A stretch of DNA of 28,764 bases from a virus: positions 1 through 28,764 of IMG/VR virus record IMGVR_UViG_3300041964_000042. One strand, written 5' to 3'. The position numbers and the translations under genes are program-made. Each line of letters starts with the position of its first letter. Positions within the stretch are counted from its first letter, which is position 1. Positions 198-25,189 of the stretch are shown here, piece by piece. The notes under the pieces are model-generated. The model did not search any database. It had not been told where the DNA came from and worked only from the letters and a program-made list of their open reading frames with translations.

Positions 198-270
<73 letters not shown>

Positions 271-337
271 CTTTGTCGGTTGCGGGCAGTTGCGGGTTAA
301 GTCGCGGAGTTACAGAGGCTTGCTCCTTTTAATGCAA

Positions 338-443: not shown

Positions 444-948
444 TTAAGTGTGAGCCCGCGCTCTCGTGTCAAACTGTGAACCGGATCCGCGACCGATGCG
501 GGAAACGTGGCGCGCTTTGCGCCAGACTCCCCCACCCTCGCGGCTGCCGGCGGCGTCGGTGTTGCCTTCGATCGTCCAGACCATGCCGTTTGCGTCGGGT
601 GCAGAGGGCGAGGCCGATGTGGGAAAAGGTAAAGACGACGATGTCGCCGGCCTTGATATCGCCGCCGTGCGGCTTCTTCGTTTCCGTGCTGCTGTCTTGC
701 GCGAGACTCCAAGCCTCGAAGCCCCATGCGGCTGCAGTAGTTGGCCGCTTGAATGTATAGCTGCCGCCCTTCATCGCTTCACGCACGAGCCAGCAGACGA
801 ACGCGGCACACCAGGGCCATGCTGCCGTTGGCGTCAACGTCGTGGCTGCCTTGTATTCGTTAACCCGCGGACCGCAGTTACTCCCGTCGATCTCCTGGAC
901 ACCGACTTCTTTCTTTGCGAGTGCGACGAGTTTTTGAGCGAGGGACAT
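444..948 (-). CDS. CHAP-domain endolysin (frameshifted)
   Basis: A phage lysin expected to cut peptidoglycan peptide or amide bonds. The first ~115 residues are uninterrupted from ATG 948. An N-terminal helix (AQKLVALAKKEVGVQE) leads to the catalytic cysteine in AWPWCAAFVCW (Cys47), and His110 lies in FTFSHIGLA; this Cys/His order is typical of CHAP amidases. Near 605-620 the frame changes. The family-like continuation (ANGMVWTIEGNTDAAGSREG) is found one frame away and runs to TAA at 444-446. In the original frame the tail becomes Arg/His-rich and ends at 469. A good ribosome site (GGGGCGGAG) lies just before the start, 15 nt after the hydrolase stop, so the two genes look cotranscribed as a lysis cassette. 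The C-terminal boundary depends on the frame correction. Confidence 0.8.
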
Positions 949-963
949 GCTCCGCCCCGCATG

Positions 964-1653
964 TCAAAGCGGCAGCTCGTCGAGATCTGCGGCGAGCTCC
1001 TCCATGCTCCAGGCAAAGTGGCCGGCTGCGAACCAGGTGGAGTGGCCGAGCTCGTCACGTGCGACGACGCGGATCCGCGTCTCGAGATCGGCGGGAACGA
1101 TTGCGGGCCCCGAATACCCGAGGCGGCCGTAGAGTCCGACGATGGATGCGGCGCCGGCGATCCAGCGCAGCACCGAGTCACCGCGGGAGGTGTAGATCCG
1201 GAGTCGATCGAGGCGGCCGCTCGCAGTGCGTTGGCGAGTCCAGACGCTTGGAGATCAGTTCCGATCGCGGGTGCGAATAGGTGCAGCGAGTCGATCCGGT
1301 AGCCGCATTCGACGATCAGCCGGCGGGCGATCTCGGCGCCGCGCGAGTGGGTGACCAGGTGGAGCTCCGAGCGGGAAGTCCCGCGCGCTGGAAAGCGGCG
1401 AGGTAGCCGCTGATGAGCTGGACCACCTGACCGACTCGCTTTCCCTCACCAAACAGGCCCAGCAGTGGAGACGAGAAATACTCGAGAGAATCCACGTCGT
1501 GCAGAGTGCGCTCGAGGAACCATCGCTCTGCGCGATCCGTCCAGGAGTGTTGATCCCCAGGGCTGTGAGAATCCCATTGATGAAGAGAATGAGTTTCCCA
1601 TCGCCGCCGGCGCGTGGCGTGAATCTCTGCGGGTCGTGCGGCCAGCTCGGCAT
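964..1653 (-). CDS. Alpha/beta-hydrolase, lipase-like, in lysis cassette (frameshifted)
   Basis: Three overlapping frames join into one protein of about 230 residues starting MPSWPHDPQRF at 1653 and ending DLDELPL at 964. A beta-strand and oxyanion region (KLILFINGILT) comes first. The nucleophile elbow reads LHLVTHSRGAEIARRL, a T-H-S-R-G variant of GxSxG, followed by ECGYRIDSLHLFAPAIGTD. A late His in GHSTWFAAGHF could complete the triad. At least three one-base shifts are needed (about 1550, 1365 and 1215). The position directly before the CHAP endolysin suggests a role in release, such as cleaving lipid or ester bonds of the envelope, as LysB does in mycobacteriophages. That role is inference; an unrelated esterase carried as a moron is also possible. 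Confidence 0.68.
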
Positions 1654-1839
1654 GATGCCGAAGCCCGAGTGTCAAAGTTCACTCTCCAGACGCTCTCTGG
1701 ACAACGAACGAAATCGAGCGCTACGTTAGCTCCTCCTCGCCGAGTGCGAAACCCGGCTCATACTCGCGTTGGCAGCGCGGGCGAACCCGTGGGACAAGAA
1801 CGGATGCTTCCTGCTGAAAGACTCATCCCTCGATGCGCC

Positions 1840-2062
1840 ATGGTCCGACTCCTTGGCGCATCGCTCCTACTGCTCGGCCTGATGATCACCGCTCCGGTTT
1901 GCTCAGCGGGGTCTGCACGCCTCATGCGGAGATCTGCACGGCTTGCAAAGATTGCCGCGCGTGCCGGTACTGCTCGGGCCACGCAACTCGGCGACGTGCA
2001 GTGTTTCCCGCGAAAAAAAGGCGGGCAGCTCTACTCGTCCGAAGAAGCCAGCTCAGCGGTGA
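1840..2062 (+). CDS. Small secreted cysteine-rich protein, plus strand (frameshifted)
   Basis: From ATG 1840 the frame encodes a clear signal peptide: MVRLLGASLLLLGLMITAPV, then CSAG. One base added in the G run at ~1909-1912 continues into CTACKDCRACRYC, five cysteines each separated by two residues. A second shift near 1975 gives CSVSREKKAGSSTRPKKPAQ and a stop at 2060-2062. The composite is about 74 residues with eight cysteines. It stops 9 nt before the stop of the fibre gene on the other strand, so the two are convergent and neatly packed, which supports it being real. Every other confident phage gene left of 28.3 kb is on the minus strand, so this may be a moron with its own promoter. 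Function is unknown; metal binding or disulphide folding are possible. Confidence 0.5.
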
Positions 2063-2071
2063 CCGAAAGAC

Positions 2072-2929
2072 TCAGATCGCCTGGATCAACGCACGCTCGA
2101 TGACAAGTGGGCCGACGGCGCGAGTAACATCATCACCTGCAGACGTGCGGATCTTGATCGCCCATTGCCCGGCCGTGGCGGCGATGGCGCTGGTTGCACT
2201 TTCGTCCAAGCGGATGCGCATATTGCCCGCGGTTGCATCTTCGAGCGTAATTCCGCCGAGACTCGGGTCAGGGGCCGGCAGCCTGGCAAGGGTGATCACC
2301 CCGCTGAGATCGAGAAACAGGAGCGCATCGCTGTCGGCATCAGAGGCCCGACTCTTGATTGCGAACCAGATCTGCTCCGCGTCGAGTAGAGAGCCGAGTG
2401 CGGAAAATGAATGCTCCAACTGTCCCCTGCTCTGACGGTGATCTTGTTGCCGCTGATCGCGACAGGCGAGAGCACTTCGAATCCGCCTGGCGTGATGAGC
2501 GAGGTGTGCGCTGCGATGGTGTCGAGCTGCGCCTGCTGCTCCGGCGTAAGCCTCCGCCGCTCTCGGCGATCAGCGCGGCGATCTCTGCGAGGAGTTGCGT
2601 GGTGTCGATGGTGCCACCACCTCCGCCGCTGCTCGCGGCGTGGGCTGGGATCGTGACGGTGGCCACACCTGCCTTAGTTCCATCCTGGACGCTCGTCGCG
2701 GTGATCGTCGCGGCTTGGGGGCCGCTCGCGAGACCGCCCGCCGCGGTATAGAGCCGGTGGCGCTGATGCTGCCGAGTGTCGCGCTCCAGGTGACGCCGCT
2801 CGCAAATGGTCCGGTGCCGTTCACGGTTGCGGTGAATTGCTGGGTGCTCCCCCCGTAGAGAGTTACGGTGCCGGGGTTCACCGCGACGCTCGTGATCGTC
2901 GTCGGCACGAGCAAGGATTCATTGGTCAC
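2072..2929 (-). CDS. C-terminal part of the tail fibre: Ig-like domain plus BppU-like domain (frameshifted)
   Basis: Adding one base near 2947 lets the large fibre read through its apparent stop at 2926 into AAAVTNESLL, which completes the repeat that ends each preceding Ig unit. It then enters a Big_2-type Ig domain (SVAVNPGTVTLYGGS, QFTATVNG, VTWSATLGSI). Further shifts near 2755 and 2550 lead to a Gly-rich linker, a helix (TQLLAEIAALIAES) and LTPEQQAQLDTIAAH. A final shift near 2410 reaches LLDAEQIWFAIKSRASDADS, which resembles baseplate upper-protein (BppU) N-terminal domains, ending ERALIQAI at 2072. No stop separates these segments once the frames are joined, so I read them as one fibre with the upstream gene. 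A separate BppU-like gene is the alternative. Confidence 0.6.
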
Positions 2930-5900
2930 CGCGGCGGCGCTGAAAGCCTCCAGCGGTTGCCGGTCGTGTCCGCGATGTTGCCCGGCGTATAGCTGAGGGT
3001 CGGCGTCTCTGTCTGATAAACCGCAGGCGTGATCGTGTAGCTACGCGTCGCTCCGCTGCCGCTGGCGGCGCTGAGCGCATGGCCCGCGAGCAGAAAGCCG
3101 GTGCCCCCTGCGACGACTTCCGAGAAGTTCACCGTAAGCGTAGTGCCCGCGCTGGAGATGGTCGCGACGGTCACTGCCGGCGCGGTCACATCGGGCGGCA
3201 CCTGGGTCGAGTTGTTCGTCACTGCCGCGCCGGTGAATGCGCCCAGGGCATTGGCCGCGAGATCCGTCACGTTACCTGGCGAGTAGGAGACGGTGAGCGT
3301 TTCGCTCGCGAGGATCGTCCGCGATGGTGTGGCGGTGTAGGTGCTGCCACTAATGATTGGATCGAGCAGCGTGACCGGGCCGAGTGACGAAATGAGAGTG
3401 AAGCCGGTTGCTCCGCTTGGCGGCAGGATTGACTCGCTGAATGTCAGAACGAACACCGTGCCAGCCGCGTTTACATTGGCTGTGCTGAGCGTTGGAGGCG
3501 TCGAGTCCGCGATCTGCGTTGAGTTATTCGTCACCGCCGCGCCGCTGAATACAGCGAGCGAATTATTTGCAAGATCCTTGGTAGCCGTGCCGCTATAGCT
3601 CAGCGTCCGCGTTTGGCCCTGATGAACGATTGGCGAAATCGCCATACTCCAACTCGTCCCGCTACCAGTCGTATTCGAGAGCGTCGCCCCACCACTAAGG
3701 GAGAAGTCGGCGGCAGAAACGCCGGTGACATCTTCGCTCGTGGTAAAGCTCACCATGTTACCCGCCGCGTTGATCGAGCGGGTGGTAATGGTGGGAGGCG
3801 TCGTGTCGGGCACCTGGAAAGCCCCGGCCGCGTCGGTGCCGTCGTTACGGAATGATATTCCGGCCAGATCAAACGGCAGCGGCGCCATCCCGGCCGGGAT
3901 GCGGTTAAGGACGGCTGATCCCGCTGCAGGGATATAAGAGCCGCCACCTGTGTTAGTGCCGGTGAAGCTGCGATCATCAGCCCAAGCGCGGGTTCCGCTA
4001 AAGACGCCACGGAGCCCGATCACCTCACCCGCAAGATTGTTCGGCGCTGGAATTGCGACCGTTGCCGCGTGCACCACGTTACTCTCAAAGTCCACGTGAT
4101 AGCGGGGGGCCATGTTGCCCACCCGCAACGAACTGGCCGCCACTCCGGATGCATGGAAGTCGCTCTTGAGGTTCAGATCCTGCATCGCACTCCACCGGAT
4201 GATGCCCTGCTTGAGCGCGTAGATCGTCCCCACGTCATTGTAGAGGAAGTTCAGCCCCTCGCCCGCGATGGTGTTGCAGAGGTATTGCGCATTCCCGAAC
4301 GGAACCGTTGCTCCGTCTGCGGAAATCTCCATTCCCTTGCTGGCGCCCGCGTTCAGCACTTCGTGGAGGTTGAGCATCCAACCAATACCACTGGCGAACG
4401 TGCTAGTTGTTCCGCTCGGGAAGCTCGAGTGCGCGGTCTGTCCGATGAATTTGTTCGCGATCCACACCGGCGCATCCAGAGCGTTCGGAGGGGAGTCGAG
4501 GAAGGTCGTCGTATGTGCTGCCGTCTTGGCACTCCCGTTGAAGATATTCCCGAGGCCGTTCACCGCGCGGAACGTGATGCCGGTGTTGATCGTGCAACCT
4601 CCGAGCAACGCGGTTGCCGTCCGGTTGTTGCCGTTCCCCATGCTGTTGCCGCTCAGCGTGAAAATCGAGTTCGTGTAAAACTGCAACCCTGTCCTGGTGA
4701 CGGGGGCATTTGCTCCGGTATGGCCAGAGAAGTCGCAATCGTCGCACCACAGCTCGTTGAGAAACGGGGCTGTGGTCCAAAGCGTCCCGCCATCGAGAGT
4801 CGCGTCAATGACGGCTTCGCTGGTCGCGTTGCCCTTCATCGTCAGACCCACCATCTTCGTGCGGGTCGGTGGACGCTTGTTGTTCACCGTCACCGATGCG
4901 TTAAAGATCACTGCGGACCGCACCGCCAGTGGGTCGCGCTCGATAGTCACCCACACATCCCCCCGCGTGAGGCTGAATTGCGCAGTCGTGCCCGCTACGC
5001 CAAATCCATCGTGCGTTCCAGCCATTAGGCGCACGATATGGTTGGCCAAATTAGCCCTGCTGTAGCTCGTGCCTGATTGCACCTGGAGACGCCAAAGCGC
5101 ATACGCGGCGCTGAGAAACGGCTTGGCTCTGGCAGCAGATGGGTCAGTGGAGACTACTGCTGAGGTTCCGTCTGTTGAGTTCACACCGGCTATCGGATCG
5201 ACATAGGCGAATAGCCTCCCAAACGTCCCGGCAGCATCCTTGCGAAAGGGCAGCCGCTTCGCCGGATTGTAGTGCAGTGTGTTCGCCGCAGTGATCGCCA
5301 GAGTTCCGAAGCCGTTATCAGCACTCTTATAGGTAACATTACCCCGGAACGGATAGACCTCTGCCTCTACCGTGCAAAGTCCGTCAGTAAGCGAGGAGAT
5401 GTTGATATCAGCTGCAAAGACTGGCACCGGATTGCCGGCGGTGAGCACAGTGCTCTGACTCATTACGGCGACAGTGCTCGTGACTACTCCAGCCGCCGCG
5501 TCTCGCACGATGAATTTCACGCACGCGGCTATCCGCTTGCTCTCCCCGAAAGGGTGCGTCGCGGCCAATTCGACATGCAAGACGCCGCCCGTGATCTGCC
5601 AAGGTGGATTTACCCAGGCGATGTGTGGCCGAAGGTGCGCCGAGGTAGATGCGTTGGTGACATTGGACGTTGTTGCCTTGGCGTTGCTCGAACCATAGGC
5701 ACCCGCGCCGATACGGACGGCGGTGATCGTCTCGCCGGCAAAGAGGCGCTGATTGAGCGCGTAGGAGATTACGGCGTTCGAGCCGCTCAGTGCCTGCTGG
5801 AACTGATAGATCGCCACCGTGTCGGTAGCCGCGCCAAGATAAGTCCAGGTTACGCCGCCGTCTGAAGAGCTTCCTGCGGAATGCGTCGGCGCGGTTGCAC

Positions 5901-6228
5901 CGCTCGTTCCACCAGATGCTGTGGAATAGAATTTACTCAGGTGCGTCACGCGGGCACCTGATGCGTACACCGTCGCCGTCACCCATTGGGCGGGAATCGG
6001 CTTACGCAATGCGGCTGACGCCTGAATCGTGCGAACCGGGCGTGTGATTGCCGCTCCCGTGCTGTCGAAGCCGGGGCCGGACACATCAAACTCTACCTTA
6101 TTCGGGTCGGCGGTTGCACCCAGCGCCATCCCCTCGAACGTGATGTCTGCCACCCAGCCGTTGCAGTCCACGCCGTTGAGCAGCGTCTCGTCCCGGATAT
6201 TGATGGAAAGGATGTCGCCGGTAGCCAT
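2926..6228 (-). CDS. Large tail fibre/tailspike with beta-helix and tandem Ig-like repeats
   Basis: An uninterrupted 1100-residue frame, the longest in the window. Residues ~80-135 contain a carbohydrate-binding-like segment (VTATVYASGARVTHLSKFYS, then GGTSGATAPTHSAG and GGVTWTYLG). Residues ~350-800 look like a right-handed beta-helix as in phage depolymerases or pectate-lyase folds: an opening YVDPIAG...KPFLSAAYAL, then many short N/G/T-rich turns. From ~807 come three tandem ~100-residue Ig-like repeats. Each begins D-x-T-x-P-x-[IL] or similar; the first two end GAAVTNNSTQ. The protein probably binds host surface glycans and may degrade them; no catalytic residues can be assigned. It follows the holin-like gene after a structured 150-nt gap. 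The end at 2926 is probably artificial (see the entry for 2072-2929). Confidence 0.85.
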   Translation of the reverse strand: MATGDILSINIRDETLLNGVDCNGWVADITFEGMALGATADPNKVEFDVSGPGFDSTGAAITRPVRTIQASAALRKPIPAQWVTATVYASGARVTHLSKFYSTASGGTSGATAPTHSAGSSSDGGVTWTYLGAATDTVAIYQFQQALSGSNAVISYALNQRLFAGETITAVRIGAGAYGSSNAKATTSNVTNASTSAHLRPHIAWVNPPWQITGGVLHVELAATHPFGESKRIAACVKFIVRDAAAGVVTSTVAVMSQSTVLTAGNPVPVFAADINISSLTDGLCTVEAEVYPFRGNVTYKSADNGFGTLAITAANTLHYNPAKRLPFRKDAAGTFGRLFAYVDPIAGVNSTDGTSAVVSTDPSAARAKPFLSAAYALWRLQVQSGTSYSRANLANHIVRLMAGTHDGFGVAGTTAQFSLTRGDVWVTIERDPLAVRSAVIFNASVTVNNKRPPTRTKMVGLTMKGNATSEAVIDATLDGGTLWTTAPFLNELWCDDCDFSGHTGANAPVTRTGLQFYTNSIFTLSGNSMGNGNNRTATALLGGCTINTGITFRAVNGLGNIFNGSAKTAAHTTTFLDSPPNALDAPVWIANKFIGQTAHSSFPSGTTSTFASGIGWMLNLHEVLNAGASKGMEISADGATVPFGNAQYLCNTIAGEGLNFLYNDVGTIYALKQGIIRWSAMQDLNLKSDFHASGVAASSLRVGNMAPRYHVDFESNVVHAATVAIPAPNNLAGEVIGLRGVFSGTRAWADDRSFTGTNTGGGSYIPAAGSAVLNRIPAGMAPLPFDLAGISFRNDGTDAAGAFQVPDTTPPTITTRSINAAGNMVSFTTSEDVTGVSAADFSLSGGATLSNTTGSGTSWSMAISPIVHQGQTRTLSYSGTATKDLANNSLAVFSGAAVTNNSTQIADSTPPTLSTANVNAAGTVFVLTFSESILPPSGATGFTLISSLGPVTLLDPIISGSTYTATPSRTILASETLTVSYSPGNVTDLAANALGAFTGAAVTNNSTQVPPDVTAPAVTVATISSAGTTLTVNFSEVVAGGTGFLLAGHALSAASGSGATRSYTITPAVYQTETPTLSYTPGNIADTTGNRWRLSAPPR

Positions 6229-9872: not shown

Positions 9873-10969
9873 GTCTCCATGCCGCGCGGCGCCGTCGGCT
9901 TTGCAGGCGTCTCGATCGGCACCGCACGTTGTCTCCCGCTGTGGGATTCCCGGCTGCCGCGGTCATGCATTCCTTGTAGGTCTTGCAGCAGCCGACGTTG
10001 GCATCGAACTGCGCTTTCCAGCAGGTGACGTAGCAGGTCGAAAAGTTGTGCTGATTGCGGGCGGTGGCATGCTCCGTCTTGCAGCAGCCGAGGCGACAAT
10101 CGACGTTTTGCCTTCGTAGCCAGACGGACGCAGGCGGATTGCTGGGCTGCACAGTCCGTGAGGCACACGGGATCCACGGGATCCTCGCCGGCGGCGGCAT
10201 AGCACGCCTGGGTGCAGGTGTGGTAGCCATTGCTGCAAGTTACGTAGGAAGTGTCCGAACACGGCCCCACACCCTTCGTTGCACACGTGAACGGCTTCGC
10301 CCCGCGGACGGGCGCGCCCTGGAAATCGCCGAGACACGCGGCCGTCTTGCGTTCCGCGAGATCGACGCGGCCGAGCTCGTCGCCGGCACACCCGGCGCGG
10401 CACGCCCGGCGATTTGCCGCAGGCGTCGCGAGCGCCATTTCAAAGGTCGCGCGACGACCTGCATTGCAGGCGATCAGCGCATTAGCCGCGTCGTAGCTGC
10501 ATTCCCCCGTCGAAGGATTCGTGGTAACGTCGGTGTAGTAGGCGACGAGGCAGTCGCGCAGCCCGCTTTATACGCAGTTTCGAGGGGCTCGAGCGCATCG
10601 ATAAACGTACTCTCACACGGGCGCAGGCACGTCCCGAGTGTCGTGCTGCAACAGCTCTCGCTGGCGCTGTAGGCCTGCCGGATCGCCGTGACCGCGTTCG
10701 GCAGCTGCTCGCCGAGCAAGTGTGCAGACAGGTGGCGGCGTCGGCTCGAGCCTGTGCACGGCAGGCGCACCGATCGGCAGGTTCCTCGATATCATCGCAG
10801 GCGGCTTCGTCAGCTTCCTGCGTCTCGTCGCAATCGGCACCGCATGTTTCGAACTCCTCATTCTGCTCGATCGCGCCCCATGGCGTGAGCTGAACTCCGG
10901 AAAGTCGCACGGCTCACAAGCGGCGACACGCCCGCGAAATTGACGCCCGCGACCAGCAATCGCGCTCAC
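9862..10969 (-). CDS. Very cysteine-rich protein with repeated CX3C pairs (frameshifted)
   Basis: Five or more frame changes split this gene, but all segments share one unusual character: pairs of cysteines three residues apart in helix-prone, Ala/charged sequence. In order I see CGADC, CLHTC, CLRPC, CRAGC, CTQAC, CLTDC, CRLGC and CYVTC, with additional CC pairs and single Cys (for example SASESCCSTTLGTC and DANVGCCKTYKEC). This is the pattern of disulphide-stapled helical hairpins. The likely start is GTG 10969, overlapping the upstream stop by 4 nt, and the likely end is RHAS at 9862. Composite length is about 365 residues. I know no phage structural family of this kind. Its place between tape measure/tip genes and the baseplate genes suggests a virion component, possibly needing oxidative folding. 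Confidence 0.55.
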
Positions 10970-11383
10970 ACGCGCACCGAAACTTCTGCGCGGCTCGCAC
11001 CACATCGGCGCGCCTTAGCCCGCGAGAATCCGGCGTGACCGTGGAACGCCACGAGAGCGACCAGATACACCGCGAGAGTGAGGAGCGGGACCCCGGCCGC
11101 GAAACAGGCGCCGGCGGAGATCCACAGGCCCAGGCAGAAGGGACATGTGACCAGGCGCGCGCGATGAACGTCTTGCGAGAGCCGACCCACGCGAGAAAGC
11201 TGACCTTTACTGACCGCGCCGCACACGAGCACTCGGCGCTCTCTGCGCCGGCGAGCTGCTCGCTGCAGAGTTTCCGGAGAGGGAGCCGAAAGAGATCCGC
11301 ATACTCGAGGACGAACTCGGTGCGAAACCAGAGGATGAGGAGACCAGCGACCGAAAGGCCGAGGTGAGGATATGGGCGATCAT
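10966..11383 (-). CDS. DUF1360-like membrane protein (frameshifted)
   Basis: Begins MIAHILT at ATG 11383 after a GGGG ribosome site. One base added to a CC run near 11363 continues as LGLSVAGLLILWFRTEFVLE and YADLFRLP (membrane helix 1). Another shift near 11150 gives LVTCPFCLGLWISAGACFAA followed by VPLLTLAVYLVALVAFHGHA. The CPFCLGLW motif between two membrane helices is what I recall of DUF1360 proteins. The frame ends at 10966 (AEVSVRV). About 138 residues. A membrane protein with this fold inside a tail operon is uncommon; a role in lysis, superinfection exclusion or tail-tip membrane contact is speculative. Confidence 0.58.
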
Positions 11384-17593: not shown

Positions 17594-18067
17594 CTACTTC
17601 CAGCGGACGTACGCCTTGCGGCCGCCCTGGAGCTGCCCGGGCACGATGCAAAGCTGAATCAGATCCTCAGCCTTTTTGGGTGTGAGGCGGCCTTTAACCA
17701 GGCCGCGGAAATCTTCACGCGGCGCGTACCACACGTGCCGCTTGAACAGGGTGAGAAAATCAGCGCCGGCGAGGGCGCGGGCGGCGGCTTCATCCTCGGC
17801 GCTTTTGAGCTCGAAGCGATCGGGCGCGAGGGTCGGATCGATGGCTGCCACGACGGTGCAGATGCTCTGCGCGGCGTCCGGATCGCAGTAGCGGCCGCGG
17901 CCGAGTGCGACAAGTTGCTCGTTGATCGCCTGCAGCTCGGCATCCTTCTGCTTGAGTCGAAGAGCAATCGCGTCCCGCTCGAGCGTGATTGCCTCGGCTT
18001 CCGCAATGAGCCGCAATCCATCTGCGACGAGTGATGTGGGAACGGCAGGCGAAGTTTTGCTAGCCAT
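17594..18067 (-). CDS. Unrecognised 157-residue head-region protein
   Basis: Starts MASKTSPAVPTSLVADGLRL at ATG 18067, just downstream of an intrinsic terminator. Residues ~20-60 form a strong coiled coil (IAEAEAITLERDAIALRLKQ, KDAELQAINEQLVALG), followed by DPDAAQSICTVVAAIDPTLA and ending GQLQGGRKAYVRWK. No family recognised. Position after the capsid and before the head-tail joining protein suggests head completion or decoration. Confidence 0.68.
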   Translation of the reverse strand: MASKTSPAVPTSLVADGLRLIAEAEAITLERDAIALRLKQKDAELQAINEQLVALGRGRYCDPDAAQSICTVVAAIDPTLAPDRFELKSAEDEAAARALAGADFLTLFKRHVWYAPREDFRGLVKGRLTPKKAEDLIQLCIVPGQLQGGRKAYVRWK

Positions 18068-18077
18068 GGAGATTTGG

Positions 18078-18126
18078 AAAAAAAGTGAGCGGGGGGAGGG
18101 CGGCTTGCGCTCTCACCCCCGCTTTT
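18078..18126 (-). terminator. Rho-independent terminator
   Basis: Read on the minus strand, AGCGGGGG (123-116 of 18 kb) pairs with CCCCCGCT (95-88), with an inner GAG/CTC pair, and is followed by CAC and seven T (18084-18078). It sits between the stop at 18146 and the start at 18067, so it would separate capsid gene transcription from the tail genes or reduce read-through. The plus strand also has a four-T tract, but the minus-strand reading is clearly better. Confidence 0.72.
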
Positions 18127-18598: not shown

Positions 18599-19588
18599 TT
18601 AGGCAGCGGCGGTGTCGGAGCTGGCCACGAATGAGCCAGCGTGGCGCACGCCGACATCCATGAACTGATTGACGGTGATGCGGACGGTGCCTTGGGTTGC
18701 CTGACTGTAAGGATCAACCACCACGTCGAGGCCTGCCCAGCCGGCGACGATCATATCGGCGAAGTTGCCGAAGATCATGCGATTGCCAGGCACCTGCAGC
18801 GTCGCAAGAGCGAGATAGCTATTGATGATCCCCTCACCTGGAGCGGAGCCTTTCTCCCAAAGGAAGTCGGCATACTGAGACGCCGCGATCTTGGTCGCGC
18901 CCTTGAGTTTCGCCCGAGCGCTCGGGGTGGTGAGATAAGCCAGAGATCCAACATCGGCGTTGGCGTTTGAGACCTGCGTCTCGAAATCGAGGATCTTTGC
19001 CCACGTCGCCGCGCCGGCGAACGTAACGCTGCCGATGCCGGTCGTTGCAAGGATGCCGGTCGGCTGGTTGGTGGCGCCGGTGCCATTGATGGCCAGGAAG
19101 TCGCTGAGGATCGCGAGCACCTGCATGAGATCCATGCGGATGAAATTCTCTACGTCGATCGAAGACTGAGCGAGCAGCTGCTTGCTGTAGTCATTGAACG
19201 CACCGATGCGCTTCGGCGTGAGAGCGAGCTGGTCGATCGCCTGGGTGGATTCGGTGAGCGCGCCCTGCTCGGGAACGCTGTAGCCGGAAGCGGCGCCAGT
19301 CTGCCGCGGGATCGCGACGTTGCCGACGAGCCCGTCGAGGGAGCGTGCGCCGAGGCGGCGGATCGTCTGCCGATTGCGGAGCAGCTCGATCATCGAGCCG
19401 CCGAGCACGTCCGTCTGAACCGTGTTGCCGCCTTGGACTGCGCTGGTGACGTTCAAGTCGCGCTGGCCTTGGTAGCCTTGCATGTCGCTGCGGCCAAAGC
19501 TGGCGATATCGTTCGGCACGAAGAAGCCTTCGGGCGCGGAACCGACGATCTTTTTCCATCGCACGGGAGCACTCGAGCTCGAGGCCAT
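18599..19588 (-). CDS. Major capsid protein, HK97 fold (C-terminal part of a protease-capsid fusion)
   Basis: The uninterrupted 329-residue frame covers the mature HK97-like capsid. APVRWKKIVGSAPEGFFVPN opens the N-arm. GGNTVQTDVLGGSMIELLRN and RQTIRRLGARSLDGLVGNVA IP follow, then the long helix LSDFLAINGTGATNQPTG and IASQYADFL-type capsid segments, and NRMIFGNFADMIVAGWAGLD with PYSQATQGTVRITVNQFMDV near the end. The apparent start (MASSSSAP) is likely false. Removing one base from an AAAAA run near 19553 joins it to the upstream segment ending ECSRAMEK, whose sequence is the normal lead-in to the capsid domain. It forms the capsid shell after proteolysis. Confidence 0.9.
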   Translation of the reverse strand: MASSSSAPVRWKKIVGSAPEGFFVPNDIASFGRSDMQGYQGQRDLNVTSAVQGGNTVQTDVLGGSMIELLRNRQTIRRLGARSLDGLVGNVAIPRQTGAASGYSVPEQGALTESTQAIDQLALTPKRIGAFNDYSKQLLAQSSIDVENFIRMDLMQVLAILSDFLAINGTGATNQPTGILATTGIGSVTFAGAATWAKILDFETQVSNANADVGSLAYLTTPSARAKLKGATKIAASQYADFLWEKGSAPGEGIINSYLALATLQVPGNRMIFGNFADMIVAGWAGLDVVVDPYSQATQGTVRITVNQFMDVGVRHAGSFVASSDTAAA

Positions 19589-20456
19589 CGAGCGGTCGGC
19601 GCTCGGCGATGATCCGCGCAGCGCGGACGAGGGAGTAGCGGGCCTTCTCCTTCTGGTTCATCCCAAGATTGGGATCCAGATCGATGGGCTTGGCGCTTTG
19701 GCCAGCGATGATTTCGAAAGCAGCGCGCTTGAGCTCGTCGGCTATCCATCCCGTCCTCGAGGCGCGGGTGACGAGTGCGGTGATCTCGGAATTGCGGCGC
19801 GAACTTCTCGCCGATGGTGCGGATCTCCGCCTGGCGTTTGAGTTCGGTTTTGCGGGTATCGTCGCGGAGCTTTTTGTCGGCGGCTGCTTTTTCGGCGTCG
19901 GTCATAACAGTGATGGAAGGAGTGGTCGGAGTGGGATCAGCGGTGAAATCAGCGGATCTTTCCGCCGTGCATTCGGTGACTTCCGCGGTGTCAACAGCGC
20001 GACCAAGGCCGACACTCCCGTCGGCGCCGAGGGTGACGAGCGAGACTTCGTAAGGCTGCCAACGGGTGACGCGCAGCGTGGGCGGATCGTTTCGGGTCGC
20101 GCCTGGCTCCAGGCGATAGGCGCGCACTTTGTAGCCGACGCTCACGTCGCTCCGGATCCCATCGAGCACGTCCTGGAACTCCTGCTCGCCGGCGGCGCCT
20201 CGGGAGAAGCGGGCGAGCGCATAGCCGCGCTTCCCGTCGATCCTCACGTCGGCGACGGCTCCTACTTGCCGCTTCAGATCGTGCTCCACGCACAAAGCGC
20301 GAAGTCGGGAAAGGTCGCAGGCGCCATCCTCGTGGGAGAGGACCTCTTGCACCTGTTTGCCGCGATCGCCTTGTCGGGAAAATCTTTCGGAATGGTGCGG
20401 AGGACCGGCGTCTCGCTGCTGAAGCTGAGTGGGACGGTGCGGTCGGATTCATTCAC
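19550..20456 (-). CDS. Prohead protease and scaffold-like linker, probably fused to the capsid protein (frameshifted)
   Basis: Starts at GTG 20456 after GGAGCG: VNESDRTVPLSFSSETPVLR. One base added to an AAA run near 20355 restores QEVLSHEDGACDLSRLRALC, RGYALARFSRGAAGEQEFQD and GIRSDVSVGYKVRAYRLEPG, an HK97-family (U35) serine protease with the active His in LSHE and Ser in SVGY. WQPYEVSLVTLGADGSVGLG closes the domain. The frame then continues without a stop into a Lys-rich helical linker (TDAEKAAADKKLRDDTRKTE) and, after removing one T near 19786, SEITALVTRASRTGWIADEL and ARYSLVRAARIIAERRPLDG, leading into the capsid. It matures the head and may act in cis. If all corrections hold, one ~615-residue polyprotein results. 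Confidence 0.78.
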
Positions 20457-23973: not shown

Positions 23974-25019
23974 GCGGCGGCGAGTTGAGCTTCCTTGCAG
24001 CGGATCCGCGTCTCGTAGCTGCGCATGACGCGCGCTTTGAGGCCGGCGAAGGTGTCGCGGAGGCAATTACTGGGCTTATTTACGGCCTGCCGCGTTTTGG
24101 CGAGCGTCGCGCCGATGCCGGCGAGTGTGCGACCGTCGAGCAGATCGGGCGTGATGTGGTACGCGATGATCTGCGCACGCTCGCCGATGCCGCTGATGCT
24201 TGTGCTACGCTTTAGCCAGGCGAGCACGTTTTCGAACACCTGGCCCGTCGCTTGCAACGTGGCGATGGCCTCGCTGCTGCGCGGGTAGGCGGCAAAGCGG
24301 GCCACGAACGCCCGGGCGAGAGTGGGATCGATGATGAGCGAGCTGACCATGGAGTGATCGCGGTGCATGGCGGCGATCGCGACCATAGCCCGCTGGCCGA
24401 TCTCGACGAGCGCCTCCGGAGCGGGCTCGAGGATCCAGCGGAAGATCTCACCGAAGCTCTCGCCGGCGAGGTCGGCTTCCTTCTGGCTGAGCATCGGGAT
24501 TTCGACGCCGGCGAGCGGTTCGAGCTCATCTAGGATCGGGTGAGACTCCGCAACGATTGGCGTCGTGCCATTGCGGATGCCGCGCAGATCATGCTCAGGG
24601 ATGGGCTCATGCTCAGCGTGATCGAGCGCGTCTTCGCTCTGCTGCCCGGAATCGGGACCGCTGCGCTCATCCTGGAGCGGCTTGAAGAGCTTATGCTTGC
24701 GAGCGAAAGCCTGGTCTTCTTCGGAGAGGGAAAGAAACCAGGTGCGGTAAGTGCGCTTGTCGGCCTTCGCACTAGCGATCGCATTAGCTTGGGCTCGCGA
24801 CTGATCGAGAAAGGCTTGCTTCGCGGCTTTCTTCGGTGGGCCACCGAAGGCACCCTTAGTGCCGCGGCGGTTCGCCTTTCCTGACCGGCGCTTCATCGAT
24901 GACGGGGAAGCGTAGCCTTCTGAACTCGACAGCGGCAGGAATGAGTTGCTGTCGGTGCTAGCAGGTCCGCCCAAGGTGATCGCTGCTAGTAACCCAGCGT
25001 TGAGTGATGTCGGGGTCAT
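23970..25019 (-). CDS. HTH/sigma-like hypothetical protein
   Basis: The ATG at 25019 overlaps the small membrane protein's stop by 4 nt, giving 349 residues; a start at ATG 24896 (MKRRSGKANRRGTKGAFGGP) gives 308 and may be the real one, with a short separate gene before it. After a basic N-terminus (KTYRTWFLSLSEEDQAFARK region) come helical modules (EIFRWILEPAPEALVEIGQR, DPTLARAFVARFAAYPRSSE). The C-terminus, SGIGERAQIIAYHITPDLLD then GRTLAGIGATLAKTRQAVNK, looks like a helix-turn-helix as in sigma region 4 or resolvase-type proteins. Possibly a late-gene regulator or DNA-packaging accessory. Low certainty on function. Confidence 0.6.
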   Translation of the reverse strand: MTPTSLNAGLLAAITLGGPASTDSNSFLPLSSSEGYASPSSMKRRSGKANRRGTKGAFGGPPKKAAKQAFLDQSRAQANAIASAKADKRTYRTWFLSLSEEDQAFARKHKLFKPLQDERSGPDSGQQSEDALDHAEHEPIPEHDLRGIRNGTTPIVAESHPILDELEPLAGVEIPMLSQKEADLAGESFGEIFRWILEPAPEALVEIGQRAMVAIAAMHRDHSMVSSLIIDPTLARAFVARFAAYPRSSEAIATLQATGQVFENVLAWLKRSTSISGIGERAQIIAYHITPDLLDGRTLAGIGATLAKTRQAVNKPSNCLRDTFAGLKARVMRSYETRIRCKEAQLAAA

Positions 25020-25189
25020 ACGCGGTTCGTTTTGACCGCAACCAGGCCGATGAAGGCGTAGAGGATGGCGAGAATTACGAGCGGGATCCACAACGGAGAG
25101 AGCACCCAGAGCCAGTCCCAATGGATCACGCCGCAGAGCTTGAGGGTCACAAATGCGACCGTGAGCAGGGAGGCTAGTGAGATTTTCAT
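25016..25189 (-). CDS. Small membrane protein (57 residues)
   Basis: From ATG 25189 to TGA 25016: MKISLASLLTVAFVTLKLCG, VIHWDWLWVLSPLWIPLVIL, AILYAFIGLVAVKTNRV. Two hydrophobic stretches flank a Trp-rich turn. Small phage proteins of this shape, with the 'WxWxWVLSPLWIPL' feel, are common and have been labelled 'transmembrane Fragile-X-F protein' in some annotations, a name with no functional basis. The next ATG overlaps its stop by 4 nt. Confidence 0.75.
   Translation of the reverse strand: MKISLASLLTVAFVTLKLCGVIHWDWLWVLSPLWIPLVILAILYAFIGLVAVKTNRV

What the first reader, a model, noticed from the sequence alone, without database searches (positions are those of the whole stretch)
964..1653. 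Lipase-like alpha/beta hydrolase immediately before the CHAP endolysin
The repaired frame has a THSRGA nucleophile elbow and late His. It is 15 nt upstream of the endolysin with a strong ribosome site between. Mycobacteriophages use an esterase (LysB) to cut outer-membrane lipids, but this pairing with a CHAP lysin in another lineage would be a different lysis design.
Basis: partly seen in the sequence, partly recalled or inferred. Interest (0 to 1): 0.55.

Follow-up and report, generated by a model that had tools for sequence, protein, structure and literature searches.

The report
Fat-cutting enzyme in phage lysis cassette
A virus of outer-membrane-bearing bacteria carries, right before its wall-cutting enzyme, a gene for a probable fat- or ester-cutting enzyme, and relatives of that gene usually sit beside wall-cutting genes in other viruses, so it probably helps burst the host cell.

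Summary
Minus-strand 964-1653 encodes, in four pieces in three frames, one alpha/beta hydrolase ending 15 nt before a CHAP endolysin. All pieces align collinearly to one intact 221-aa ORF in an IMG/VR contig, also followed by a CHAP endolysin. With 13 homologues its AlphaFold2 model is good (pLDDT 83, pTM 0.85) and esterase/lipase-like; Ser96-Asp152-His195 is invariant in 18 of 18 homologues and kept in the window's pieces. Hydrolase-only searches found 28 further loci, mostly Verrucomicrobiota. Of 26 not cut by a contig end, 12 have a database-recognised endolysin within two genes, 7 an unannotated lysozyme-like gene, 2 an uncertain candidate, 5 none. At least six kinds of wall enzyme are partnered, often with a small lipoprotein and a membrane/coiled-coil gene. 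I read it as a lysis-module serine esterase, LysB-like in role but not a LysB member. Activity, substrate and effect on lysis are untested. A GDSL lipase in a Pseudomonas phage lysis cassette is a published precedent (PMC12173070): a new variant of a known kind. Whether the broken frame is sequencing error or decay is undecided; error is likelier.

The parts
964..1653 (-). alpha/beta serine hydrolase (probable esterase), one gene read in four pieces over three frames
   Evidence: pieces located; collinear alignment to intact P0001; model of P0001
1528..1653 (-). piece 1: N-terminus, first core strand with ILFINGI motif
1355..1546 (-). piece 2: SWTDRAE helix and following helices
   Evidence: 55% identity to P0001
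1209..1364 (-). piece 3: nucleophile elbow THSRG and strand 6
   Evidence: 60% identity to P0001; weak Pfam Hydrolase_4 match 0.0046
964..1215 (-). piece 4: acid TSRGD, LYGRLGY motif, His in GHSTWF, stop
   Evidence: 47% identity to P0001; tblastn 7e-23
949..963 (-). 15-nt spacer between hydrolase stop and endolysin start
   Evidence: sequence printed
444..948 (-). CHAP-type endolysin, broken into two frames (598-948 and 444-701)
   Evidence: Pfam CHAP 5.8e-5, PHROG endolysins; NCBIfam TIGR02594 2e-7, below its cut-off

Best explanation
The gene is a phage lysis-module serine esterase of the alpha/beta-hydrolase fold. SHOWN: fold by a confident model of the intact homologue; conserved Ser-Asp-His; no signal peptide or membrane segment seen in seven members checked; recurrent same-strand placement beside endolysin genes of six or more kinds, often with a small lipoprotein gene and a membrane/coiled-coil gene. 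INFERRED: it is made late in the cytoplasm, leaves through the holin lesion together with the endolysin, and cuts ester-linked acyl groups of the envelope (outer-membrane phospholipid, lipid A or lipoprotein acyl chains are the likeliest targets) so that the outer membrane gives way once the wall is cut. It works like mycobacteriophage LysB but is a separate family.
For: One intact 221-aa homologue followed by a CHAP endolysin on an otherwise scarcely related contig. Model pLDDT 83.1, pTM 0.85, with nucleophile after strand 89-95, Asp after strand 141-148 and His after strand 185-189; Foldseek best human monoglyceride lipase 3.9e-5; VIA Z 16.0 to 5f2h (183 aligned, 3.5 A), 15.4 to Est30 1tqh, 14.8 to B. 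subtilis lipase 1i6w. Triad invariant in 18 of 18. Context: of 28 loci found with hydrolase queries (L003; L133-L143; L183-L187; L201-L211), 2 are cut by contig ends; of the other 26, 12 have a recognised endolysin within two genes, 7 a lysozyme-like gene, 2 an uncertain candidate, 5 none. Control: 32 weak hits that are other alpha/beta hydrolases have none of these endolysins in their 2.6-3.6 kb (0 of 32). Partner enzymes switch across the tree, and the lysozyme-like partner recurs across its deepest, fully supported split.
Against: No activity, substrate or lysis phenotype was measured. Five of 26 loci (L142, L143, L185, L208, L211) have no endolysin found nearby; in L142 and L143 the gene sits among structural or other phage genes by my reading. 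Many loci are close relatives (L133-L137, L139, L140), so loci are not independent events. None of the other 79 IMG/VR loci with a related CHAP endolysin carries a homologue, so the esterase is not required by that endolysin. Lipoprotein and membrane/coiled-coil genes in many cassettes could be spanins, so the outer membrane may already be dealt with. Seven of the partner calls rest on an unannotated lysozyme-like protein.
Confidence: 0.6

Rival explanations
1. It is a peptidoglycan or wall-polymer O-acyl (for example O-acetyl) esterase that strips esters so that the neighbouring endolysin can cut; the target is the wall, not the outer membrane.
For: Pairs with wall enzymes of several kinds (CHAP, TIGR02594, VanY/M15, PHROG endolysins) rather than with one; fold matches carboxylesterases and feruloyl esterases as well as lipases.
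Against: No match to a named peptidoglycan O-acetylesterase family in the Pfam or NCBIfam scans and no wall-binding domain match; partner enzymes of different bond specificity would not all need de-O-acetylation (inference).
Confidence: 0.15
2. It is released at lysis to degrade host extracellular polymer or capsule esters for the next infection round, as PMC12173070 describes for PghP of phage PhiNIT1.
For: In the window and L003 the gene follows tail-like genes; a published lysis-cassette lipase was proposed to act on surface polymer (PMC12173070, passages read).
Against: No signal peptide seen in seven members; several loci lie just before terminase-like genes, away from tail genes.
Confidence: 0.12
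3. It is a cargo (moron) gene for host lipid metabolism or superinfection exclusion that hitch-hikes at the end of operons where lysis genes also lie.
For: L142 and L143 have it next to other phage genes; absent from most related CHAP loci.
Against: Tight, same-strand coupling to wall enzymes in several unrelated genome layouts, with stop/start overlap in L110, L138, L183 and L203.
Confidence: 0.08
4. The window's copy is a dead gene: real frameshifts have inactivated it, whatever the family does.
For: Several frame changes in 690 bp; L201 carries a decayed second copy, so loss happens in the family.
Against: The adjoining endolysin and the capsid gene of the same window are frame-broken too, as expected from assembly error; all catalytic residues and 44-60% identity are kept in pieces 2 to 4.
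Confidence: 0.12

Closest known systems
Mycobacteriophage Lysin B (LysB; Ms6, D29)
   Same: Ester-cutting enzyme of the lysis cassette for the outermost envelope layer; Ms6 LysB is needed for efficient lysis and is said to parallel spanins (PMC5707550, passages read).
   Different: Other host lineage and envelope; no sequence match to any PHROG; elbow is T-H-S-R-G in the window and [AGT]-H-S-[NR]-G in the family; activity unknown.
GDSL lipase in the lysis cassette of a Pseudomonas syringae pv. actinidiae siphophage (source of part24, PMC12173070)
   Same: Lipase gene in a probable lysis cassette of a Gram-negative phage; the lipase domain, tested inside an endolysin fusion, cut C2-C10 esters (passages read).
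   Different: GDSL-type with a carbohydrate-binding part, upstream of a holin; ours has the nucleophile at residue 96 after the central strand and no GDSL motif.
Two-component and unimolecular spanins (PMC6139136)
   Same: Third lysis function, for the outer membrane; 91 of 677 phages there had no spanin found (passages read).
   Different: Spanins are lipoproteins and membrane proteins; the hydrolase has neither feature. Lipoprotein plus coiled-coil membrane genes in the cassettes here may be spanins.
YdeN/RBBP9-like serine hydrolases (Pfam Ser_hydrolase, PF06821) and DUF900 (PF05990)
   Same: Nearest weak profile matches: DUF900 1.4e-5 above its cut-off in L183; Ser_hydrolase 6.9e-4 below its cut-off in L139.
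   Different: P0001 itself reaches no cut-off; only the middle of the protein aligns.

Membership tests
alpha/beta-hydrolase superfamily | Fold: central sheet with strand-nucleophile elbow-helix, acid after a later strand, His after the last strand | tested here: met
   Model pLDDT 83.1, pTM 0.85; 42 PDB chains at E <= 0.001; VIA Z 14-16
alpha/beta-hydrolase superfamily | Ser-Asp-His triad in that order | tested here: met
   S96, D152, H195 in 18 of 18; window pieces keep all three
Mycobacteriophage LysB | Sequence membership in a known phage protein family | tested here: not met
   No PHROG at E <= 10 for P0001 or the window's hydrolase pieces; no hit in 50,697 phage records for four queries
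Mycobacteriophage LysB | Coded next to the endolysin | tested here: met
   Window, and 19 of 26 evaluable loci counting lysozyme-like partners
Mycobacteriophage LysB | Mycolylarabinogalactan esterase activity on a mycolata host | not testable with these tools
   No assay; homologues found lie in Verrucomicrobiota, which are not mycolata
Spanin | Lipoprotein signal and/or transmembrane segment | tested here: not met
   None by hydropathy and lipobox scan in seven hydrolases
GDSL/SGNH lipase | Nucleophile in an N-terminal GDSL block | tested here: not met
   Conserved Ser is residue 96 in HS[RN]G
Phage lysis gene (functional class) | Loss changes lysis | not testable with these tools

The most novel reading that the evidence does not exclude
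A whole lineage of phages of outer-membrane bacteria of the Verrucomicrobiota uses a dedicated lipid esterase as a standard third or fourth lysis function, coupled to interchangeable endolysins: an enzymatic way of breaking a Gram-negative-type outer membrane that replaces or assists spanins.
Probability: 0.3. Interest if true: 0.75.

Novelty: new variant of a known kind. Interest (0 to 1): 0.55.

Why it matters
How tailed phages open the outer membrane is known mainly for spanins; the spanin census read here found none in 91 of 677 phages (PMC6139136). An unannotated serine-esterase family that is repeatedly wired to different endolysins in Verrucomicrobiota phages would give an enzymatic alternative that can be tested in culturable hosts, and would give many unnamed phage genes a role.

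Tried and rejected
Reading it as a virion tail esterase: not favoured, because several loci lie just before terminase-like genes. Reading it as tied to CHAP endolysins: rejected, since six or more partner types occur. Reading it as a LysB family member: rejected on sequence. D29 LysB did not appear among the 50 VIA rows shown; that absence is not evidence of a different fold. Searches that led nowhere: P0001 patterns in genome contigs (50 stretches, no relative); A13 in viral contigs (127 stretches, none); four tblastn searches of phages with hydrolase queries; PDB sequence searches for the hydrolase (nothing under 0.02) and the lysozyme-like partner (nothing credible). Pseudomonadota (16 of 398) and Bacteroidota (10 of 296) gave only weak, mostly partial matches, best 8e-9 and 2.6e-9, treated as other alpha/beta hydrolases. 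Host of the window not settled: its portal protein matches 18 of 221 Verrucomicrobiota and 4 of 223 Bacteroidota genomes, but the closest cellular CHAP relatives are Kapaibacterium/Bacteroidetes/Ignavibacteria MAGs at 63-66%, and no hydrolase homologue was found in those loci (L089, L091, L092 looked at gene by gene). Paper searches for an earlier report of this family; two searches found no paper, the others gave listings and starts of abstracts, of which three papers were read in passages (PMC6139136, PMC12173070 with its abstract, PMC5707550). The library holds only openly licensed papers, so this does not show that nothing is in print.

Full report
WHAT IS THERE. The window is a 28,764-base virus record. 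Recognised phage genes run on the minus strand: terminase small and large subunits, head-tail joining protein, portal, protease/major capsid, a long ORF at 2926-6228 that I read as tail-like (its two PHROG matches are of unknown function), then the hydrolase and the CHAP endolysin at the low-coordinate end, next to a tRNA-Glu on the plus strand. The hydrolase occupies 964-1653 in four overlapping pieces in three frames. The endolysin starts 15 nt after the hydrolase stop; the ribosome-site claim is only moderately supported, because GGAG lies one base from the ATG.

IS IT ONE REAL GENE? A tblastn-confirmed scan with the C-terminal piece found one IMG/VR contig with an intact 221-aa ORF (P0001). 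The window pieces align in order along it at 55, 60 and 44-47% identity for pieces 2 to 4; piece 1 is shown at 31% but was placed badly there, and rests on its position and the NGI motif. BLASTP E-values for three pieces are 4e-20, 1e-13 and 2e-14. That contig shares with the window, at E <= 1e-3, the hydrolase, the endolysin, one further gene (window 17597-18112, 6e-10) and two trivial matches, so the pair is held in common by otherwise scarcely related phages. The intact ORF is likewise followed by a CHAP endolysin (Pfam CHAP 1.1e-7, PHROG endolysin 1.6e-16). The window's endolysin and capsid genes are frame-broken too, so sequence error is the likelier cause of the broken frame, but this was not decided.

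FOLD AND ACTIVE SITE. A first model built from P0001 and the fragments was poor (pLDDT 57). With 13 homologues (A10) the model of P0001 reached pLDDT 83.1 and pTM 0.85. Order of elements: strand 89-95, Ser96, helix 98-107, strand 113-119, strand 141-148, Asp152, strand 185-189, His195: the canonical alpha/beta-hydrolase order. Foldseek's best PDB matches are monoglyceride lipase, YqiA and RavL; VIA gives Z 16.0 for 5f2h, 15.4 for esterase Est30 and 14.8 for B. subtilis lipase A. Ser96, Asp152, His195, the His before the Ser, Trp34 and the glycines at 24, 98, 167, 170 and 173 are the same in all 18 homologues tested. No signal peptide, lipobox or membrane segment was seen in seven hydrolases by a simple hydropathy and lipobox scan. 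A shared fold does not by itself show lipase activity.

WHERE RELATIVES LIE. Viral contigs gave only the L003 contig with the first four queries and 11 loci with a broader alignment. Genome searches: 2 of 387 Verrucomicrobiota genomes; 12 of 68 in one family (11 near-full-length genes in 10 genomes plus two weak partial matches in larger ORFs); 14 of 384 in the class (seven at 2e-12 or better, two of them seen before, and seven weak partial ones). L110, a named Verrucomicrobium MAG contig, was found through the endolysin and is left out of the counts below.

GENOMIC CONTEXT. Loci found with hydrolase queries: L003; L133-L143; L183-L187; L201-L211; 28 in all. L140 and L204 are cut by contig ends near the gene. 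Of the other 26: recognised endolysin within two genes in 12 (L003, L183, L184, L209 CHAP; L138, L141, L201, L203 TIGR02594/NlpC-like, of which L138 and L141 were scanned with NCBIfam and L141 lies under the cut-off; L186 VanY/M15 with PHROG endolysin 1.4e-38; L202 PHROG 315 endolysin 7.9e-45; L207 PHROG 17001 endolysin 7.6e-20, and L206, whose product is visibly the same protein); an unannotated lysozyme-like protein in 7 (L133-L137, L139, L187); an uncertain candidate in 2 (L205, third gene; L210, a PHROG of unknown function); none found in 5 (L142, L143, L185, L208, L211). The lysozyme-like protein has no match in Pfam above cut-off, NCBIfam or the PDB sequences; its L187 member has one weak PHROG match of unknown function (0.0017), and its single phage-record match, in a Bradyrhizobium phage, is annotated 'peptidoglycan-binding protein'. 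I recall such proteins as lysozyme-family, but no call says so. Stop and start overlap in L138, L183, L203 (and L110) and nearly meet in L187. A small lipoprotein-like gene adjoins the hydrolase in many loci, upstream (L110, L141, L183, L209) or downstream (L133-L137, L139, L140, L186, L202, L205, L208, L211), and a membrane or coiled-coil gene lies upstream in others (L134-L141, L201, L203); these could be holins or spanins. Several loci lie just before genes that I read as terminases (L110, L183, L184, L186, L187, L210), others near tail-like genes. As a control, 32 loci of weak hits to other alpha/beta hydrolases contain none of these endolysins (0 of 32; loci 2.6-3.6 kb). The converse does not hold: of 80 CHAP loci only the already known contig has the hydrolase, and of 29 cellular CHAP loci only L110 does.

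EVOLUTION. In an 18-sequence tree the L185/L186/L187 branch is separated from the rest with full support, yet L187 shares the lysozyme-like partner with the L133 group; TIGR02594-type partners also occur on two separate branches, though L141 is a long branch of unsure place. Partners seem to have been exchanged while the hydrolase stayed. The L133-type loci are close relatives, so the 26 are far from independent; I count at least six partner types in several genome layouts.

MECHANISM. Best reading: a cytoplasmic serine esterase that leaves with the endolysin through the holin lesion and cuts ester-linked acyl groups of the envelope. Shown: fold, triad, context. Inferred: timing, export, substrate, effect on lysis. 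Rivals are listed separately; the O-acyl esterase for the wall is the strongest.

COMPARISON. LysB of Ms6 is needed for efficient lysis and is said by its authors to parallel spanins (PMC5707550, passages). The spanin survey states that Lysin B esterases are essential in phages of the mycolata and found no spanin in 91 of 677 phages (PMC6139136, passages). [quoted passage not shown] The present family is distinct in sequence and nucleophile position and is unmatched in PHROGs and in 50,697 phage records for the queries tried. No paper describing it was found in eight searches of an open-licence library, which is weak evidence of absence.

VERDICT. A real and conserved lysis-associated hydrolase family, new in detail; function unproven. 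Interest 0.55.

Noticed in passing
window 1833-2435 +: Plus-strand frame with a cysteine-rich stretch CTACKDCRACRYC, opposite to the phage genes, upstream of the hydrolase; the motif was not found in the other loci held at that time.
   Followed up: partly
window 198-271 +: tRNA-Glu (CTC) close to the contig end and next to the end of the lysis genes; could be an attachment site or a phage tRNA.
   Followed up: no
window 18602-20448 -: Protease-type head protein (phrog_4523, phrog_617) and major head protein (phrog_617) pieces in two frames, consistent with one fused protease-capsid gene broken by a frame error.
   Followed up: no
window 10966-11232 -: Membrane-type ORF with two hydrophobic segments and a TCPFCLGLW motif, recalled as DUF1360-like; possible holin candidate.
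   Followed up: no
window 25016-25189 -: 57-aa ORF with two hydrophobic segments downstream of the large terminase; another small membrane protein candidate.
   Followed up: no
L201 3081-4681 +: A shortened, decayed second copy of the hydrolase (3081-3281) followed by the endolysin and then an intact hydrolase: a duplication or a replaced copy.
   Followed up: no
L113 7018-8375 + and L100 8001-9648 +: Other alpha/beta hydrolases next to CHAP genes in proteobacterial contigs: a class 3 lipase just upstream (Pfam Lipase_3 1.6e-34) and a DUF900 protein just downstream (2.1e-26); possibly independent cases of the same pairing.
   Followed up: partly
L133 7987-8535 -, L187 9119-9712 -: A lysozyme-like 180-197 aa protein family without Pfam (above cut-off) or NCBIfam match, linked to the hydrolase in seven loci.
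   Followed up: partly
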